Below are positions 20,536 to 61,305 of a stretch of 64,000 bases of DNA, in pieces (position 1 is the stretch's first letter; each line of letters begins with the position of its first letter). The notes beneath the pieces are model-generated. The model searched no databases. It had not been told where the DNA came from and saw only the letters and a list, made by a program, of their open reading frames with translations. Origin of the DNA: a virus; IMG/VR virus record IMGVR_UViG_3300030098_000945, positions 1-64,000 of that record. The stretch is one strand, 5' to 3'. The position numbers were made by a program, and so were the translations under genes.

Positions 20536-20894
20536 AGATAAACGAGAATACAAATATTTCTTTACCAGTTAGAAATCTTTTAGCTTTGTGTGCGGCTGTA
20601 GCTTTGGGAATTTTCGCATATACAGAAATAACAGCCAGGATTACGAGCTTAGAAACATCAAGAGAATTACACCAAGCAGATTTATTAAAGAAGAGCGAGC
20701 AGTTACCAACAGATCAAGAACAGTTTATGCTGCTTGAACACATAGCGGGTCAAGTAGAAAATATAGAAAAAGAGATGGAGGGTATGAGAAACAATACTGT
20801 AAATCTTAATAGAGCTATGGAAGATATAAAACAAATTGAACAAACTTTAGAAATTTTAAAAGACAAAGTAAGAGATAATGGTAACCACCAATGA
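20532..20894 (+). CDS. Membrane-anchored coiled-coil protein (possible inner spanin)
   Basis: A 120-residue protein with an N-terminal membrane segment (NLLALCAAVALGIFAYTEI) and a long periplasmic coiled coil rich in Glu, Lys and Leu. This topology is that of an inner-membrane spanin, which joins the membranes during lysis of Gram-negative hosts. It is in the lysis region and conserved at 57800-58159. A Cys-containing lipoprotein candidate lies at 21530-21694. Confidence 0.5.
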   Translation: MKINENTNISLPVRNLLALCAAVALGIFAYTEITARITSLETSRELHQADLLKKSEQLPTDQEQFMLLEHIAGQVENIEKEMEGMRNNTVNLNRAMEDIKQIEQTLEILKDKVRDNGNHQ

Positions 20895-21142
20895 TGGAAA
20901 AAATATTAACATTATTGGTTGGATTATTAATTGCTTTAGGAGGCTGGTCGCTTTCCAGAACATTTGAACTATCTACGGGTCAAGCAGTTCTTGAAGATAA
21001 AGTTGAAAGATTAGAAATGCAGCTAACATTAATAGATCAGAAGATGGATGAAATGTTTGATATGGATGAAGAAATTATGAAACAACACGAACAATTATTT
21101 AAAAAATTAGAAAATTCAAACACAGGGTATAGTTATAACTAA
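20891..21142 (+). CDS. Membrane-anchored coiled-coil protein (83 aa), unit A only
   Basis: An 83-residue protein with an N-terminal membrane segment (LTLLVGLLIALGGWSL) and an acidic coiled coil (LEDKVERLEMQL, then DMDEEIMKQHEQL). It resembles the preceding gene in topology but not in sequence. Absent from unit B, where the next conserved gene follows directly. A lysis-related role is possible. Confidence 0.5.
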   Translation: MMEKILTLLVGLLIALGGWSLSRTFELSTGQAVLEDKVERLEMQLTLIDQKMDEMFDMDEEIMKQHEQLFKKLENSNTGYSYN

Positions 21143-21357
21143 TGATAGAAACAGTAATAGCTCTTTTATTAATTGTAGATCACGAAATAAAAGAACACAG
21201 AATACAAGATAGTTTAAGTAAATGCTTAAAAGGGAAGAGGGTAGCCGAGAGGCAATTAAAATCTGGAGATAGAGTTCAATATAAATGTATTAAATCTAAA
21301 GCAGAGATAGAAGTTTATATGGGAGAAAAAAAAATAACTAAATTAATAATGGAATAA
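21142..21357 (+). CDS. Small exported-like protein (71 aa)
   Basis: A 71-residue protein with a short hydrophobic N-terminus (TVIALLLIVD) then a polar region with two Cys. It is conserved at 58159-58377 (pattern EIKExRIQxSLSxCLKGKR and the ending KKLIME). It begins in the stop of the preceding gene. Function unknown. Confidence 0.6.
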   Translation: MIETVIALLLIVDHEIKEHRIQDSLSKCLKGKRVAERQLKSGDRVQYKCIKSKAEIEVYMGEKKITKLIME

Positions 21358-21533
21358 TGGATATAAAAGATAAAATAGTTGGATTAGCTTTAGTAGCTTT
21401 GGTTTCACTTATTGGTTGGAACCTTCACGCTACTTGGGATTTAAAATCTGAATTAATGAAAATTCAACAAGATCAAAAAGTCTTACACAAGAAAATGAAT
21501 AAAGTTTTAAAAAAAGTTAAAAAGAAAAAATGA
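21357..21533 (+). CDS. Small membrane protein with basic tail (58 aa)
   Basis: A 58-residue protein: N-terminal membrane segment (IVGLALVALVSLIGWNL), a short coiled coil and a Lys-rich end (KKVKKKK). The start overlaps the previous stop (TAATG). With the lipoprotein that follows, it could form a spanin pair, but the sequence alone does not show it. No counterpart in unit B. Confidence 0.5.
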   Translation: MDIKDKIVGLALVALVSLIGWNLHATWDLKSELMKIQQDQKVLHKKMNKVLKKVKKKK

Positions 21534-21694
21534 AGTATTGGATAATAGTTATAGTCTATACTTTATTATTTTTAACAGCTTGTGTTTATAAGTTAGAGCC
21601 AAATCAAACTACTGTTGAATATGGTACTTCTGAAAATGGTAAAGATAAAACAAGTAAAAGTATTAAACAAACTTTTAAATGGAATAAGCAATGA
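21530..21694 (+). CDS. Small lipoprotein (54 aa), candidate outer spanin
   Basis: A 54-residue protein with signal peptide IIVIVYTLLFLTAC: LTAC is a good lipobox, predicting lipidation at Cys18 and a mature peptide of ~37 residues. Size and place in the lysis region fit an outer-membrane spanin, or a small phage-encoded surface lipoprotein. It overlaps both neighbours by 4 bases. No counterpart was seen in unit B. Confidence 0.5.
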   Translation: MKYWIIVIVYTLLFLTACVYKLEPNQTTVEYGTSENGKDKTSKSIKQTFKWNKQ

Positions 21695-22162: not shown

Positions 22163-22239
22163 TGGTCTGGGTGGGAGGATTTGAACCTCCGATCCTCTGC
22201 TCCCAAAGCAGATGCGATACCAGGCTTCGCTACACCCAG
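22163..22239 (-). tRNA. tRNA-Pro (anticodon TGG)
   Basis: A complete 77-base cloverleaf on the minus strand with encoded CCA. Acceptor CTGGGTG pairs with CACCCAG; D-stem GCGA pairs with TCGC; anticodon stem TCTGC/GCAGA encloses the loop TTTGGGA with anticodon TGG; T-stem GGAGG/CCTCC encloses TTCAAAT. It lies at the end of unit A, left of the att core, with its 3' end facing unit A. It may be phage-borne or a remnant of an attachment gene. Confidence 0.93.
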
Positions 22240-56569: not shown

Positions 56570-57007
56570 ATGGCAGATTATACTGAACTCAAAGAAAGCA
56601 TTAAAGAACACGAAGGGTATAGAGATCATATTTACAGGGATAGCTTGGGTATTCCTACTATCTTTTGGGGTCATATGGTTTTGGATACCGATGACTATGT
56701 TGAAGGTGTTAATTATTCCATTGAAGATGCTGAGAAGTGTTTTGATAAAGATTTTAATATTGCTTTACAAAGTGCTGAGAAATTAATTGGCGATATAGAA
56801 GTTAATCATATTCAAAAATGCGTAATCATTGAATGCGTGTATCAACTTGGTGGACCAAGGTTTTCTAAGTTTAAAAAGTTTTGGCAAGCTATGAGAGATG
56901 GCGATATGGAAAAAGCTGCCGATGAAATGATAGATAGCAGATGGCATAAGCAAACACCTGGTAGGTGTGAGAAAGCTGCTGCTAAAATGAGGAGTTCAAA
57001 TAAATAA
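56570..57007 (+). CDS. Endolysin, T4-type lysozyme (GH24 family, unit B)
   Basis: 145 residues with HEGYRDHIYRDSLGIPT and WGH: the Glu, Asp and Thr of the GH24 active site. Close ortholog of 18807-19244. Without a signal peptide it depends on the holin encoded next. Confidence 0.9.
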   Translation: MADYTELKESIKEHEGYRDHIYRDSLGIPTIFWGHMVLDTDDYVEGVNYSIEDAEKCFDKDFNIALQSAEKLIGDIEVNHIQKCVIIECVYQLGGPRFSKFKKFWQAMRDGDMEKAADEMIDSRWHKQTPGRCEKAAAKMRSSNK

Positions 57008-57008
57008 T

Positions 57009-57389
57009 ATGTGGTTAAGTGCAATTAAATTAGCGTTGAATGCTGGAACGCATATATACAAAAAGAAACAAGAAACTAAAATGGCTATGGCTGATGCACA
57101 GCACATGGCGGCTCAGAAGATGGCTAAAGGGGAAACTGAGTATCAAGGTAAATTATTAGAAGCTAGACAATCAGACTGGAAAGACGAATTTGTGCTGATC
57201 GTGTTGACGCTCCCAATATTAGTGATTGCTTACGGGGTGTTCTCAGACGATCCTGGTGCAGCAGCAAAGATAAAAGAGTTCTTTGAGCAGTTCCAACAAC
57301 TTCCATCCTGGTTCACAAATCTTTGGATTTTAGTAGTGGCTAGTATTTATGGAATTAAAGGAACTCAAATATTTAAGGGGAAAAAATGA
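57009..57389 (+). CDS. Holin-like protein (3TM type), unit B version
   Basis: 126 residues. A Gln/Lys/Met-rich helix precedes SDWKDEF, then hydrophobic segments FVLIVLTLPILVIAYGVF and SWFTNLWILVVASIYGI. The SWKDE-type motif and layout match 3TM holins, but the sequence around it differs from unit A and the gene region has higher G+C, suggesting replacement. Confidence 0.7.
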   Translation: MWLSAIKLALNAGTHIYKKKQETKMAMADAQHMAAQKMAKGETEYQGKLLEARQSDWKDEFVLIVLTLPILVIAYGVFSDDPGAAAKIKEFFEQFQQLPSWFTNLWILVVASIYGIKGTQIFKGKK

Positions 57390-57679: not shown

Positions 57680-57803
57680 AGCTCCTAAGTGGGGAGTAAA
57701 TACCTACGTTAAAAGAACCAAGCCAAGTGTAGGTAGGCATAAGAAGAATATGAATAAACAAGAAAAAAAATCTTATAAAAAATATAGGGGTCAAGGAAGA
57801 TGA
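57672..57803 (+). CDS. Small basic protein (43 aa) with YRGQGR tail (unit B)
   Basis: 43 residues, Lys/Arg-rich, overlapping both neighbours by a few bases. Ortholog of 20401-20535: the KxxxGxHKKNxNKxEK and GQGR ends match while the N-terminal third differs. Function unknown. Confidence 0.6.
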   Translation: MAKAPKWGVNTYVKRTKPSVGRHKKNMNKQEKKSYKKYRGQGR

Positions 57804-58159
57804 AGATTAACGACAACACAAATATATCTTTACCAGTTAGAAATTTAATAGCTTTACTTGCGGCTGTTGCTTTTGGAATTTTCGCATATACAGAAATTAC
57901 AAGTAGACTTACAAGTTTAGAGAACTCTAGGCATATTATGGAAGCTGATTTAATTACTAAATCAGATCAAAAAATTACAGACCAAGAACAATTTTTGTTG
58001 CTTGAAATATTAAGTACAGCTCAAGAAAATACAGATGAAGAAATGCAGAGCATGAGAAATAATAATGTCAACCTTAACAGAGCTATGAAAGATATTGAAG
58101 AGATGAAAGCAACAATAGAAATTTTAAAAGATAAAGTAAGAAAGAATGGGAGCCATTAA
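57800..58159 (+). CDS. Membrane-anchored coiled-coil protein (possible inner spanin, unit B)
   Basis: 119 residues, ortholog of 20532-20894, with the N-terminal membrane segment (NLIALLAAVAFGIFAYTEI) and a periplasmic coiled coil. Topology fits an inner-membrane spanin. It is coupled to the next gene by TAATG. Confidence 0.5.
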   Translation: MKINDNTNISLPVRNLIALLAAVAFGIFAYTEITSRLTSLENSRHIMEADLITKSDQKITDQEQFLLLEILSTAQENTDEEMQSMRNNNVNLNRAMKDIEEMKATIEILKDKVRKNGSH

Positions 58160-58377
58160 TGGAGCAAGTGGTAATAGCTTTATTAATGATGATAAATTCA
58201 GAAATTAAAGAAGCAAGAATACAAACCTCATTAAGCGATTGTCTTAAAGGCAAGCGTTACGCTATGAGGGAGTTGGATAGTAAATCAAAAGTTTCTTATC
58301 AATGCGTTAAATCTTTAGCTGAACTTGAAACTAATATTGACGGCTCAATATCAATTAAAAAATTAATAATGGAATAA
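58159..58377 (+). CDS. Small exported-like protein (72 aa, unit B)
   Basis: Ortholog of 21142-21357: hydrophobic start (VVIALLMMIN), EIKEARIQTSLSDCLKGKR and KKLIME end. In unit B the extra 83-residue membrane gene that precedes it in unit A is absent. Function unknown. Confidence 0.6.
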   Translation: MEQVVIALLMMINSEIKEARIQTSLSDCLKGKRYAMRELDSKSKVSYQCVKSLAELETNIDGSISIKKLIME

Positions 58378-58381
58378 CAAA

Positions 58382-58495
58382 ATGATTGACAAAATTATAT
58401 TAAAATTTTTTGGGGGTATAGATACATTTACAGAATGGCTCTTTGCCTGGCAAAAACCAAGATGTAAGTGTAAAAAAAAAAATGAAAAGGATTAA
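58382..58495 (+). CDS. Small conserved protein with CKC motif (37 aa, unit B)
   Basis: 37 residues, ortholog of 21691-21807 (MIDKIILKFFGGID, PRCKCK). In unit A two more small genes, including the lipoprotein, lie before it; here it follows directly. Its 3' end overlaps the start of the secreted Ser/Thr-rich protein. Confidence 0.55.
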   Translation: MIDKIILKFFGGIDTFTEWLFAWQKPRCKCKKKNEKD

Positions 58496-59093
58496 ACCAA
58501 TAACTTATGGAATATTAATTTTAGTATGGATTTTCTTAATAACTGCAACAACGGGTGCTTATGCTGGTTCTACGCAAACAAACGTATCTGGTTCTAATAC
58601 AGCTATTGAAGGAAACTATACTGGAGGTTCTACTACCTATGAAAGTGGATCTTCATCCTCAACTACATCTACAACAAATTCAACTTCAAACATAAGATCT
58701 GCACCACCTACAAGTTCAGCTCCAGGTATGAACACATCTAATAATTGTGCATTAGCTTTATCAGGTGGCGTACAAACTTTTTCTATTGGGGTATCTGGTG
58801 GTAAATCTTATCAAGATGAAACTTGCGAACTAATTGCTTTATCAAAAACTTTAAGTCAAATGGGAATGAAGGTGGCTGCTATCAGTTTGCTTTGTTCTGA
58901 TGAAAGAGTATTCCAAGCAATGTTCATGGCAAAAACTTATTGTCCGGTAGATGGTAAGATTGGCGAAGATGCTTACAATTTATTAGTTAATAAATATGAT
59001 TATGAAATGCCTACATATAAAAAATATGTAGAGTTAGAAAAGAAAAAAATAATTTTACCTAAAAAAAAACCAAAAATTAATAAGAAGAAATGA
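58482..59093 (+). CDS. Secreted Ser/Thr-rich protein (203 aa), unit B only
   Basis: 203 residues from the ATG at 58482. A signal peptide (ITYGILILVWIFLITATTGAYA) is followed by a Ser/Thr/Gly-rich low-complexity stretch and a C-terminal Cys-containing domain (CALALSGGVQTFSIGVSGGK, LLCSDERVFQAMFMAKTYCP) with a Lys-rich end. Proteins of this kind recur near the lysis genes of SAR11 phages as I recall, with unknown function. A host-surface role in the periplasm or envelope is possible. Confidence 0.6.
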   Translation: MKRIKPITYGILILVWIFLITATTGAYAGSTQTNVSGSNTAIEGNYTGGSTTYESGSSSSTTSTTNSTSNIRSAPPTSSAPGMNTSNNCALALSGGVQTFSIGVSGGKSYQDETCELIALSKTLSQMGMKVAAISLLCSDERVFQAMFMAKTYCPVDGKIGEDAYNLLVNKYDYEMPTYKKYVELEKKKIILPKKKPKINKKK

Positions 59094-59203
59094 TTTGGTT
59101 ATTAATTTTTATAGGAGTAATGGCTTATGCGGTTTATCGCATCAATACTTTTGCTGATAATATTAACCCTTACAATTTCAGCAGAAGAGATAACGACAGA
59201 TAA
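59090..59203 (+). CDS. Tiny membrane protein overlapping the next gene (37 aa)
   Basis: 37 residues: a membrane segment (IWLLIFIGVMAYAVY) and a short polar tail. It starts in the stop of the preceding gene, but its second half overlaps the secreted protein gene at 59127 in another frame. It could be real, since spanins are sometimes nested, or only a spacer that carries the AGGAG for the next gene. Confidence 0.3.
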   Translation: MIWLLIFIGVMAYAVYRINTFADNINPYNFSRRDNDR

Positions 59204-60548
59204 CTTATTAACTAACGGCAACTTTGAAACGGGTAATGCTAATGGTTGGACTACAAGTGGAAATACACAAGTAGTATCTGATTGCTGCGAATTAAATAAT
59301 GTAACCAGCAATTATGATTTAGAGTTTGGCGATAGCGGATCTATTACACAAGATGTAAATTTAACTACTAATACTATTACCCAAGATATGTTGGATAATG
59401 GTATTACCCTTACCCAGGTAACTGAAGTTCAAAACGGAGAATGTAATGTATCTGGATGTTGGGGTGGTCAAGGTGCAGCTGATACCTTTACTATTAATCT
59501 TAATATAAAGAATAGTTCTGGAACAGTTATTGCAACCATGACAACTGTAAGAACGGATGTAACCGGTATCAATGGAGCTAACTTTACAGATACTTTAATA
59601 TATACCGGTAATGGTTCTAACATTGGTAACACTACTATTTCAGCGATAGATGCTAATGCTCCAGCTACTCTTGGTGGACCCAACGTAGATAACATCTCTT
59701 TAAGAATGACATATAATAATGTTGTTTTAGAAGTTGAGACACAAGAAGCATTACAAGAATTTGAAGAAACAGTTTTATTTGAAGAAGAAGAAACTTTTTT
59801 TACTGAAGAGTTTGTTGAATTATTTACTGAAGAAATACAAACTATAGCAGCATCTCCATTACCCACAGAAGAAAAAGCGGTAGAGATAACGGCTGCTATC
59901 ATAGAGTTTGAAGAAAAGACAGAAACAAAAGTAACCAAAGCTGAAATTCAGACTACTGCTTTATTACCTCCACCAACAATGATGGCAGAGGAAGAAGAAG
60001 AAAAACCAGCAGAGATAGCAATGGCTATTATGGAAGAAACTCAAGAAGAGGAAGCTCCACCAGAACCTAAAGAAGAAATTATTGAAGAAACAAACAATGT
60101 TCAAGAAGAAGAAAAAACAGAGAGCAAATCAGAAGTTAAAACAGAAGAAAAACAGAAGCCGAAAGAGCAAGAAAAGCCGAAGAAAGTAAAGACTAAAGAA
60201 ACTAAATCAAAGAATACTAAAGTTGCAAAATTAGAAGCAGCTATGGATAAGGTTGATAAGGTAGTTAAAGATACTGCAAAGAACCTTGAAGTAAAAAATA
60301 TTATAAAACTAGATGCTATGCAAAGCGATATGGTTTTAGCTGAGTATATGAACCAAGAGTTTTATAAGAGTAAAGATATATATTTAAACCAGGTTATTAT
60401 GTTTGATAATAGAGACATTTATAACAATGTTAATTTGGTTCAATATACAAGTAATGATCCAATAAACATTAAAGAAAGTATCTTACAAGACATCAACATA
60501 CAAAAACAAAAACTATTAATGGAGATAGAGGTATTAAGAAATGGGTAA
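59127..60548 (+). CDS. Secreted acidic protein with carbohydrate-binding-like N-domain (473 aa), unit B only
   Basis: 473 residues. Signal peptide (FIASILLLIILTLTISA), then a domain at ~25-205 beginning LLTNGNFETGNANGWTTSG, the opening typical of CBM/galactose-binding-like jelly rolls. The middle is an extreme Glu/Lys/Pro-rich, probably unstructured region (residues ~215-390), and the last 85 residues form a charged helical end. Such architecture could span the periplasm. Absent from unit A, so it is a cargo gene of this phage. Lysis, spanin-like or surface-modifying roles are all possible. Confidence 0.6.
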   Translation: MRFIASILLLIILTLTISAEEITTDNLLTNGNFETGNANGWTTSGNTQVVSDCCELNNVTSNYDLEFGDSGSITQDVNLTTNTITQDMLDNGITLTQVTEVQNGECNVSGCWGGQGAADTFTINLNIKNSSGTVIATMTTVRTDVTGINGANFTDTLIYTGNGSNIGNTTISAIDANAPATLGGPNVDNISLRMTYNNVVLEVETQEALQEFEETVLFEEEETFFTEEFVELFTEEIQTIAASPLPTEEKAVEITAAIIEFEEKTETKVTKAEIQTTALLPPPTMMAEEEEEKPAEIAMAIMEETQEEEAPPEPKEEIIEETNNVQEEEKTESKSEVKTEEKQKPKEQEKPKKVKTKETKSKNTKVAKLEAAMDKVDKVVKDTAKNLEVKNIIKLDAMQSDMVLAEYMNQEFYKSKDIYLNQVIMFDNRDIYNNVNLVQYTSNDPINIKESILQDINIQKQKLLMEIEVLRNG

Positions 60549-60846
60549 ATTAAAAGATCAGTTAGCTGGAATAGCAGCTTTAATTGCTGCTGTTGTTGCC
60601 ATAGGTGGAGGTTTTACAAAATATGGAGAACTTACTACTAGACTTAATGAAATAGAAAATAAATCTTCTATAGATCATTCATCACAAATAGCTGTACTTG
60701 AAGAAAAGGTTGCAGCATTAGAAAATAAAAAAGAAGTAGATGTATCTGGTATAGATACTAGATCTAAGATTAATGAAAAATCTATTAAGCTACTTGAATT
60801 AAAAATTGAAGAATTAAAAGCTGCTGCAAATCCTTTAGGTGGTTAA
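60541..60846 (+). CDS. Membrane-anchored coiled-coil protein (101 aa)
   Basis: 101 residues with an N-terminal membrane segment (LAGIAALIAAVVAIGGGF) followed by a coiled coil (QIAVLEEKVAALENKKE). It overlaps the preceding gene by 8 bases. The topology resembles the possible inner spanin at 57800-58159 and the unit A gene at 20891-21142, without clear similarity. Confidence 0.55.
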   Translation: MGKLKDQLAGIAALIAAVVAIGGGFTKYGELTTRLNEIENKSSIDHSSQIAVLEEKVAALENKKEVDVSGIDTRSKINEKSIKLLELKIEELKAAANPLGG

Positions 60847-61029
60847 ATGCCTAAGAAAACTTGGGTTAGATCTAAAACTATTATTATAGATATTGGTAAA
60901 TGCCGGTATTGTAATAAGGATATGACGAATCAAGAAAGTTTTGTAGCGTTTGCAGATAAGACAAAAGCTCATTATCAATGTATGAAAGATGATGATGCTA
61001 AGAGATCAGAAGATAAAACTTACGAATAA
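60847..61029 (+). CDS. Small zinc-finger-like protein (60 aa, unit B)
   Basis: 60 residues, ortholog of 21771-21968: CRYCNKDMTNQESFVAF and KAHYQCMKDDD give paired CxxC and HxxC. It is the last rightward gene of unit B, directly before the attachment region, as in unit A. Confidence 0.6.
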   Translation: MPKKTWVRSKTIIIDIGKCRYCNKDMTNQESFVAFADKTKAHYQCMKDDDAKRSEDKTYE

Positions 61030-61305
61030 TTACAAGAGTTTTATTAGAGTGTATGATGGGTCAACTAGACACCACCCAATAAAATAAGGGTTATTTTATA
61101 CGCATAATTGTCAACTAAAATTATACAATTTAAGAAAGAAAATGTTATATAACAATAACAATTTAACGAAATGGCGTTAGGTTCAAATCCTGCCGCCCCG
61201 ACCATTTAAGCGTTGGTAATCAACACTTATTTTTTTTCTTAGAGTGAAACTGAGAGTGAATTATTAAAGAGGGGAATTAATTTTCCCCTCCTTTTTTTTT
61301 GCGTG
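61030..61305 (+). other. Attachment site region between units B and C
   Basis: No gene in these 276 bases. Positions 61089-61160 match the block at the A/B junction, including the palindrome TGTTATATAACA (61143-61154). Then comes the shared core TAGGTTCAAAT (61178-61188), continued by a perfect tRNA 3' end CCTGCCGCCCCGACCA (61189-61204). Its acceptor strand CGCCCCG-A-CCA fits a proline-type tRNA, but only the 3' fragment is present. To its right are AGTGAAACTGAGAGTGAA boxes, possible arm sites of the unit C integrase. Confidence 0.6.
61269..61301 (+). terminator. Rho-independent terminator at the left end of unit C
   Basis: GAGGGGAA (61269-61276) pairs with TTCCCCTC (61283-61290) around a 6-base loop and is followed by C and a run of nine or more T. 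It stops rightward transcription arriving from unit B before it enters the leftward integrase operon of unit C. Confidence 0.8.

What the first reader, a model, noticed from the sequence alone, without database searches (positions are those of the whole stretch)
58482..60548. Pair of secreted cargo proteins in B: Ser/Thr-rich protein and a CBM-like protein with a Glu/Lys/Pro arm
Both have signal peptides, are absent in A and sit at the variable 3' end of the late operon. The larger one joins a jelly-roll-like domain to a ~175-residue charged arm long enough to cross the periplasm. They could be a novel disruption system for the outer membrane (spanin-like), or surface proteins that alter adsorption.
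Basis: partly seen in the sequence, partly recalled or inferred. Interest (0 to 1): 0.5.

Follow-up and report, generated by a model that had tools for sequence, protein, structure and literature searches.

The report
Pelagiphage envelope-spanning lysis module candidate
The two exported proteins belong to a conserved gene unit that many ocean bacteriophages carry, often near their cell-bursting genes, and it may be a new kind of device for breaking the outer membrane, though nobody has tested it.

Summary
P1 (58482-59093) and P2 (59127-60548) have probable signal peptides and are absent from phage A. P2 joins a sugar-binding-type jelly roll to a ~166-residue acidic arm. They belong to a nearly obligate cassette with P3 (60541-60846), a probable membrane-anchored coiled coil ending in NPL, and in about half of the loci µ (59090-59203), an unannotated 37-residue membrane microprotein overlapping P2. 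In the best 80 viral-contig hits to the P2 C-terminal domain, P1 was upstream in 57 of 57 testable loci and P3 downstream in 76 of 76 (31 of 31 and 44 of 44 after removing near-duplicates). The cassette occurs in diverse pelagiphages and, with a different P2, in roseophages. It lies within 3.5 kb of an endolysin in 16 of 22 records (5.3 expected; threshold chosen afterwards), across three endolysin families. In phage A the slot holds a membrane protein plus a small lipoprotein. Best explanation: an outer-membrane disruption complex that works like a spanin but is not one by definition, since the lipid anchor is missing. Function untested. Confidence 0.5; new variant of a known kind.

The parts
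58482..59093 (+). P1: 203 aa exported protein; Ser/Thr-rich linker, C-terminal helical domain (about residues 110-190) with Cys; basic tail
   Evidence: phrog_20531 (unknown function) in 62 of 62 members; four Cys conserved in 62 of 62; AF2 mean pLDDT 61, residues 111-190 about 80
59090..59203 (+). µ: unannotated 37-aa single-TM microprotein ORF, out of frame, overlapping the stop of P1 and the start of P2
   Evidence: motif ORF in 67 of 132 loci, also in Mosig and L206; in 23 distinct sequences chosen by position alone, pN/pS over the P2 overlap is 0.35 in the µ frame against 1.06 in the P2 frame (0.48 against 0.87 without the motif codons)
59127..60548 (+). P2: 473 aa; signal peptide, jelly roll (about 21-200), acidic arm (198-363), conserved C-terminal domain (364-473)
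59718..60215 (+). acidic arm of P2 (residues 198-363), variable in length between two more constant parts
   Evidence: arm 137-277 aa against C-terminal part 108-113 aa; mean pairwise identity 0.30 against 0.55; residues 270-363 below pLDDT 50
60541..60846 (+). P3: 101 aa, N-terminal TM plus coiled-coil-like region, C-terminal NPL motif; its ATG overlaps the end of P2 by 8 bp
56570..57007 (+). endolysin of phage B (phage lysozyme)
   Evidence: PF00959, E 2.7e-12
57009..57389 (+). holin candidate (phrog_2524, unknown function; two C-terminal hydrophobic stretches), next to the lysozyme
   Evidence: position and sequence
57800..58159 (+). anch119: TM plus coiled-coil-like protein, probable distant relative of P3, matched in 44 phage records
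58159..58377 (+). g72: small probable exported protein (phrog_24646) that usually follows anch119
21357..21694 (+). counterpart slot in phage A: 58-aa TM protein (21357-21533) overlapping a 54-aa lipoprotein with lipobox LTAC (21530-21694), spanin-like pair

Best explanation
P1, P2 and P3, with µ where present, form an envelope complex that completes lysis by disrupting the outer membrane, working like a spanin with a different anchor. P3 is the inner-membrane rod: an N-terminal TM with its coiled coil and NPL tail in the periplasm. P2 is exported; its conserved C-terminal domain docks near P3 (the two genes overlap), its acidic arm crosses the periplasm, and its sugar-binding-type jelly roll holds a glycan at the outer side (lipopolysaccharide or wall). 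P1, whose Cys-rich domain stays paired with the NPL tail even where P2 is a different protein, is the likely adaptor that binds that tail. Once the endolysin has cut the wall, the complex can bring the two membranes together or destabilise the outer one. Shown here: gene order, co-occurrence, conserved motifs, predicted fold of the jelly roll, proximity to endolysins in most records with both. Inferred: export and topology, late expression, interactions, and the lysis step itself.
For: Nearly obligate unit: in the P2-anchored set P1 lies upstream in 57 of 57 and P3 downstream in 76 of 76, with P2/P3 overlapping in 73 of 76; in the P1-anchored set 41 of 42 have both; without near-duplicates 31 of 31, 44 of 44. 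P3 ends in NPL (at most six residues after it) in 73 of 76, whereas 9 of 4,556 other ORFs of 60-220 aa do, 7 of them rods downstream of P1 that the P3 profile misses. Endolysin within 3.5 kb of P1 in 16 of 22 records, three families, 5.3 expected, simulated P 5e-6. In Mosig the gene before P1, across a 223-base gap, is a GTA_holin_3TM holin over the Pfam cut-off. In four records (W02, W03, W04, G020) the unit instead lies just before the terminase gene, near where T7 keeps its spanins (T7 layout recalled). Phage A has a TM protein plus LTAC lipoprotein in the same slot. In relatives, lipoprotein-like ORFs of 52-55 aa, TM proteins of 60-65 aa or anch119-g72 lie between P1 and P2. P3 family: commonest PHROG match is 'Rz-like spanin' phrog_739, 8 of 44, plus phrog_8821, 4 of 44. 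Jelly roll: Z 19.3 over 170 residues at 2.8 A to the Fbs1 sugar-binding domain, CBM61 Z 15.0 over 136 at 2.4 A.
Against: No functional data. P1 and P2 in the window have no lipobox, so the defining o-spanin anchor is missing. Four pelagiphages without P1 also showed no lipoprotein candidate with a ribosome-site match, so lack of a classical spanin does not single out carriers. Many phages with the unit also keep anch119-g72, so it is not a simple swap. In 6 of 22 records the endolysin is 9.6-27 kb away, and 11 further P1 records had no match to the three families. The 3.5-kb threshold was chosen after seeing the data; at 1.5 kb there is no enrichment (4 of 22, P 0.2) and at 8 kb P is 0.009. 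Records are related and were picked by me for length, so effective n is below 22. The terminase control gives 4 of 13 against 1.9 expected (P 0.11), so some clustering of late genes cannot be ruled out. The PHROG spanin matches are weak, and coiled coils attract such matches. L019 has P1 with 3 kb downstream and neither P2 nor P3. µ was not found in 65 of 132 loci.
Confidence: 0.5

Rival explanations
1. Periplasmic control of lysis timing: P3 is a single-TM holin or holin partner with a periplasmic domain, and P1/P2 are exported regulators that hold or release it, comparable to T4 T and RI (recalled).
For: P3 and anch119 are TM plus coiled-coil-like proteins in the same operon stretch as the endolysin and holin candidate; exported Cys-containing neighbours P1 and g72.
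Against: Phage B already has a holin candidate next to the lysozyme; a jelly roll with a long arm is not needed for such a role; among the P3 family's PHROG matches Rz-like spanin is commonest, and the one holin-like name (phrog_8369, 'hol-like chemotaxis') is hit by 1 of 44.
Confidence: 0.17
2. Surface or periplasmic proteins that change adsorption, such as superinfection exclusion or shielding of the infected cell by the sugar-binding jelly roll.
For: Jelly roll of the CBM/Fbs type; the A-slot lipoprotein matches phrog_1119, Cor superinfection exclusion, weakly (E 0.0046); P1 matches a sortase-dependent surface-protein model below its cut-off (E 3e-4).
Against: No PADLOC match in six proteins; the P2 C-terminal domain is more conserved than the jelly roll; linkage to endolysins is not predicted.
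Confidence: 0.15
3. Virion or tail-fibre accessory proteins: P2 as a receptor-binding or adhesin protein and P1/P3 as assembly helpers.
For: Several viral structural matches of the P2 jelly roll are named tail fibre or minor tail proteins; phrog_2636 tail fibre in 2 of 45; in S28-C10 the unit follows a tail-fibre gene by a few genes.
Against: Signal peptides and a TM partner are unusual for virion proteins; the matches cover mainly the jelly roll, a common fold; in most records with an endolysin match the unit is near the endolysin.
Confidence: 0.1
4. Moron-like cargo expressed from the lysogen, unrelated to lysis.
For: Variable 3' end of the operon, two short genes before the integrase region in phage B.
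Against: The unit recurs as a block in many phages, where it often lies by the endolysin or terminase.
Confidence: 0.08

Closest known systems
Two-component spanins (lambda Rz/Rz1, T7 18.5/18.7)
   Same: Overlapping genes, often near the endolysin; an N-terminal TM with a coiled coil; an exported partner; enough length to cross the periplasm; place before the terminase in some carriers
   Different: No lipid anchor on P1 or P2 in the window; three proteins plus, in half the loci, a microprotein; a sugar-binding-type jelly roll; conserved NPL tail and a Cys-rich domain
Unimolecular spanin (T1 gp11)
   Same: Would serve the same step
   Different: u-spanin is one lipoprotein with a C-terminal TM; none of the parts has that layout
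anch119 family of pelagiphages (phrog_20984)
   Same: P3 appears homologous (hhalign 94%, E 9.5e-8; P3 profile hits anch119 at E 1.7e-5 among window ORFs)
   Different: anch119 ends in N or NG and usually precedes g72; function also unknown
CBM_4_9 / CBM61 / Fbs1-type sugar-binding jelly rolls
   Same: Predicted fold of P2 residues 21-197; CBM_4_9 in 2 of 45 members, best E 6.5e-4
   Different: 13-18% identity for the Fbs, CBM61 and CBM16 rows; sugar binding not tested; fused to an arm and a C-terminal domain without a known relative here

Membership tests
Two-component spanin | i-spanin: N-terminal TM, periplasmic coiled coil | tested here: inconclusive
   P3 has a hydropathy TM near the N-terminus; coil judged from sequence, PDB profile matches mostly coiled coils; orientation not testable; 'Rz-like spanin' PHROG matches in 8 of 44, best E 1.9e-4
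Two-component spanin | o-spanin: outer-membrane lipoprotein with lipobox | tested here: not met
   no lipobox in P1 or P2 of the window; the six-frame scan gives only two antisense hits inside phage B; strict lipobox in 2 of 62 P1 and 4 of 45 P2 homologues, and in 2 of 183 P1 and 9 of 135 P2 profile hits (one row a repeat)
Two-component spanin | genes adjacent or overlapping and linked to the lysis cassette | tested here: met
   P2/P3 overlap 73 of 76; endolysin within 3.5 kb in 16 of 22, not in 6; in the window 1.5 kb after the lysozyme gene
Two-component spanin | required for outer-membrane disruption after endolysin action | not testable with these tools
   needs a lysis assay
Unimolecular spanin | N-terminal lipobox plus C-terminal TM in one protein | tested here: not met
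   P2 has no lipobox and its hydropathy TM is at residue 1 only
Carbohydrate-binding jelly roll (CBM) | CBM-type jelly-roll fold | tested here: met
   predicted model, Z 19.3, 170 residues, 2.8 A to 1umh; CBM61 Z 15.0, CBM16 Z 13.7
Carbohydrate-binding jelly roll (CBM) | binds a sugar | not testable with these tools
   no ligand test
Type VIII secretion (curli) module of pelagiphages | CsgG in the same genome | tested here: not met
   PF03783 in 0 of 34 records (many are fragments), control positive in 4 of 14

The most novel reading that the evidence does not exclude
A lectin-anchored, lipid-free outer-membrane disruptor: a multi-protein lysis machine in which a membrane rod with a near-universal NPL docking tail (P3), a Cys-rich adaptor (P1), an arm-bearing sugar-binding protein (P2) and often a hidden overlapping microprotein (µ) replace or assist the lipoprotein spanin in phages of the ocean's most abundant bacteria.
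Probability: 0.3. Interest if true: 0.85.

Novelty: new variant of a known kind. Interest (0 to 1): 0.62.

Why it matters
Kongari et al. 2018 (PMC6139136; [quoted passage not shown] In ten phage genomes I scanned (nine pelagiphage isolates and uncultured S28-C10), no lipoprotein candidate had an upstream ribosome-site match. This unit offers a concrete, testable candidate for how SAR11 phages open the outer membrane, and it gives motifs and a fold to protein families now annotated mostly as hypothetical.

Tried and rejected
Lipobox in P2 of L136/L139/L140: after reading the sequences, LMLSC is not canonical and Baldr has LMLNW at that place, so withdrawn. 'P2-P3 without P1' in the same loci: wrong, P1 lies upstream of anch119. 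Simple exchange of P1-P2-P3 for a lipoprotein pair: not general; relatives also show anch119 with or without a detected g72 and no cassette (L098, L099, L104 and others) and mixed states. Lack of classical spanins as a mark of carriers: not discriminating (the strand of each weak hit was not checked against annotation, ORFs across piece borders could be missed). First \u00b5 test chose sequences by the \u00b5 motif, which favours the \u00b5 frame; repeated without that filter and without the motif codons, same direction; the 12 codons upstream of P2 gave 0.62 against 0.79 and 0.96, not decisive; no alignment or significance test. CRP-207 gp73 and CRP-810 gp51, annotated as lysozymes: no Pfam lysozyme match; not counted as endolysins. 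Fold of P1: no chain with Z 2 or more among 48, not evidence of a new fold. Sequence relatives in PDB: one at E 0.96 for P2, none for P1 or the P2 C-terminal domain, mostly coiled coils for P3. NCBIfam: only matches below the curated cut-offs. Homologue of the A lipoprotein in phage records: none. Mosig P3 as query found only itself. Curli/T8SS link, raised by PMC9599517 (passages seen): CsgG absent. Host range from genome contigs: 11 loci, MAG or single-cell contigs of mixed taxa, possibly misbinned phage, not used for host claims. Literature: searches; opened were PMC6139136, PMC9599517, PMC12753301 and PMC9038755 (passages; one full section of the first). None of the passages seen describes this unit; that is the extent of my not-in-print claim. 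Expression data for HTVC027P (PMC12753301) could not be matched to these genes; supplements were not readable.

Full report
What is there. The window is most of a 69,712-base IMG/VR virus record holding two related phages in tandem, each with an integrase gene; I call them pelagiphages because their relatives are. In phage B the late operon runs lysozyme (56570-57007), holin candidate (57009-57389), a 97-aa gene, anch119 (57800-58159), g72 (58159-58377), P1 (58482-59093), P2 (59127-60548), P3 (60541-60846), then a 60-aa gene (60847-61029). Phage A has homologues, in the same order, of the lysozyme, the 97-aa gene, anch119, g72 and the 60-aa gene. It differs by another holin candidate, by two extra genes (166 and 83 aa), and by a 58-aa TM protein and a 54-aa lipoprotein (LTAC) in place of P1-P2-P3. 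The P1 and P2 profiles find no phage A match below E 0.1; the P3 profile finds anch119 there.

A conserved unit. tblastn against 50,697 phage records finds P1 in 10 and, with the CRP-207 copy as query, 11: pelagiphages HTVC033P, HTVC202P, Baldr, HTVC023P, Mosig and HTVC115P, uncultured S28-C10, roseophages CRP-207 and CRP-810, and two Manatee Spring genomes. They are diverse: S28-C10 is Autographiviridae, Mosig Kyanoviridae, HTVC033P HMO-2011-type (PMC9038755, passages). In the ten regions read with annotation P1 is followed by a P2-slot protein and a TM/coil protein ending in NPL; in HTVC115P anch119 and g72 lie between P2 and P3.

In the kept P2 set, with enough flank, P1 was upstream in 57 of 57 and P3 downstream in 76 of 76; P2 and P3 overlap in 73 of 76; P3 ends in NPL with at most six residues after it in 73 of 76 (one more has NPL with eight residues after it, two end otherwise). 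In the P1 set with more than 2.6 kb downstream, 41 of 42 have both; L019 is the exception. The two sets share some contigs. After removing near-duplicates of P2, 45 remain: P1 31 of 31, P3 44 of 44, NPL 41 of 44. The kept hits are the best-scoring ones, so this speaks for the closer relatives. In genome contigs, 7 of 11 loci reach far enough past P1, and all 7 have a rod ending in NPL; in four of them (L207, L209, L210, L211) the P2 and P3 profiles miss. Outside the P3 profile, 9 of 4,556 ORFs of 60-220 aa end this way, and 7 of these are rods downstream of P1. The MW202675 rod ends in NPMQ.

Anatomy. P1: four Cys in 62 of 62 homologues; helical C-terminal domain at moderate confidence; no fold match. 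P2: the predicted jelly roll matches Fbs1 sugar-binding domains (Z 19.3), CBM61 (15.0) and CBM16 (13.7). The arm varies from 137 to 277 residues while the C-terminal part stays at 108-113 and is the most conserved (mean pairwise identity 0.55, against 0.39 for signal peptide plus jelly roll and 0.30 for the arm). P3: TM plus coil; profile comparison with anch119 gives probability 94%, E 9.5e-8 for this one pair, and the P3 profile hits anch119 in B (1.7e-5) and A (5e-5). Coils can inflate such scores. anch119 matches 44 phage records, 39 of them Pelagibacter phages; of the 40 rows listed only HTVC115P also has P1.

A hidden fourth ORF. A 37-aa single-TM ORF with an NPY[ND]F-like motif overlaps the start of P2 out of frame. 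It was found in 67 of 132 loci with a suitable P1-P2 arrangement and starts 28-49 bases before P2, also where other genes separate P1 and P2. Choosing by position alone (P2 start 34 bases after the P1 end) gives 35 loci, 23 distinct, each open for at least 33 codons. Over the overlap pN/pS is 0.35 in the µ frame and 1.06 in the P2 frame; without the motif codons 0.48 and 0.87. The µ frame thus carries the constraint, though no significance test was made.

Link to lysis. I searched 34 records, chosen mostly for length, of the loci then held. P1 is in 33. Matches to Phage_lysozyme, Amidase_2 or Peptidase_M15_3 occur in 8, 4 and 11; one lysozyme record (G018) lacks P1 and was dropped, leaving 22. 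The endolysin is within 3.5 kb in 16 of 22 against 5.3 expected by random placement (P 5e-6). Other thresholds: 4 of 22 at 1.5 kb (P 0.2), 9 at 2.5 kb (0.006), 16 at 5 kb (6e-5), 16 at 8 kb (0.009). The terminase control (13 records with a match, 3 of them under the family cut-off) gives 4 of 13 at 3.5 kb, 1.9 expected, P 0.11. Those four (W02, W03, W04, G020) are among the six records with a distant endolysin; there the unit lies just before the terminase, near where T7 keeps its spanins (recalled). In Mosig the gene before P1 is a GTA_holin_3TM protein. In S28-C10 the unit lies between a holin-like TM protein and the terminase genes, where HTVC019P and HTVC200P have anch119-g72. In relatives of phage B the slot or the P1-P2 gap also holds small lipoprotein-like ORFs (the A type; 48 aa in L155, L156, L158, L159; 52-55 aa in L038, L052, L079, L283, L288) and TM/coil proteins of 60-65 aa. 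Non-membrane small ORFs occur there too.

Spanins. A six-frame lipobox scan found no candidate with an upstream ribosome-site match in six P1 carriers, nor in four pelagiphages without P1; phage A has one. Weak hits without such a site occur in seven of these ten genomes; one, in HTVC104P (AGNC), is an annotated gene. The P3 family's commonest PHROG match is Rz-like spanin (8 of 44; a second such model 4 of 44; best E 1.9e-4), and two phage A TM proteins match the same model weakly (E 0.004 and 0.007). These matches are suggestive only.

Verdict. I rate a spanin-like outer-membrane disruption complex at 0.5, control of lysis timing 0.17, surface or adsorption role 0.15, virion role 0.10, moron 0.08. 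It is not a spanin by definition, since the lipoprotein criterion was tested and not met; 'works like a spanin' remains the best-supported reading. Kongari et al. leave this possibility open.

Noticed in passing
58382-58495 +: A 37-aa ORF (MIDKIILKFFGG...RCKCKKKNEKD) overlaps the start of P1; by eye, similar peptides with a Cys/Lys-rich tail occur near the cassette in L022, L023 and L031 and in HTVC010P and HTVC200P; could be a cationic lysis peptide.
   Followed up: partly
22163-22239 - and 61184-61204 +: Phage A carries a tRNA-Pro gene near its integrase; phage B carries a 21-base stretch like a tRNA 3' end near its own integrase, probable attachment sites.
   Followed up: partly
20891-21142 + and 21357-21533 +: Two small TM/coiled-coil-like proteins of phage A weakly match the Rz-like spanin PHROG.
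   Followed up: partly
L008:3292-3873 and L010:7204-7626: CRP-207 gp73 and CRP-810 gp51 are annotated as lysozymes but show no Pfam lysozyme match and are TM/coil proteins ending in NPL.
   Followed up: yes
bases 68055-68222 of the window's own record (beyond the window): A 55-aa lipoprotein-like ORF (TSGC, with a ribosome-site match) lies past the integrase region of phage B.
   Followed up: no
57800-58159 +: anch119 matches 44 phage records, 39 of them Pelagibacter phages, and lies one small gene after a holin candidate in HTVC010P, HTVC019P and HTVC200P; it deserves study as a general pelagiphage lysis candidate.
   Followed up: partly
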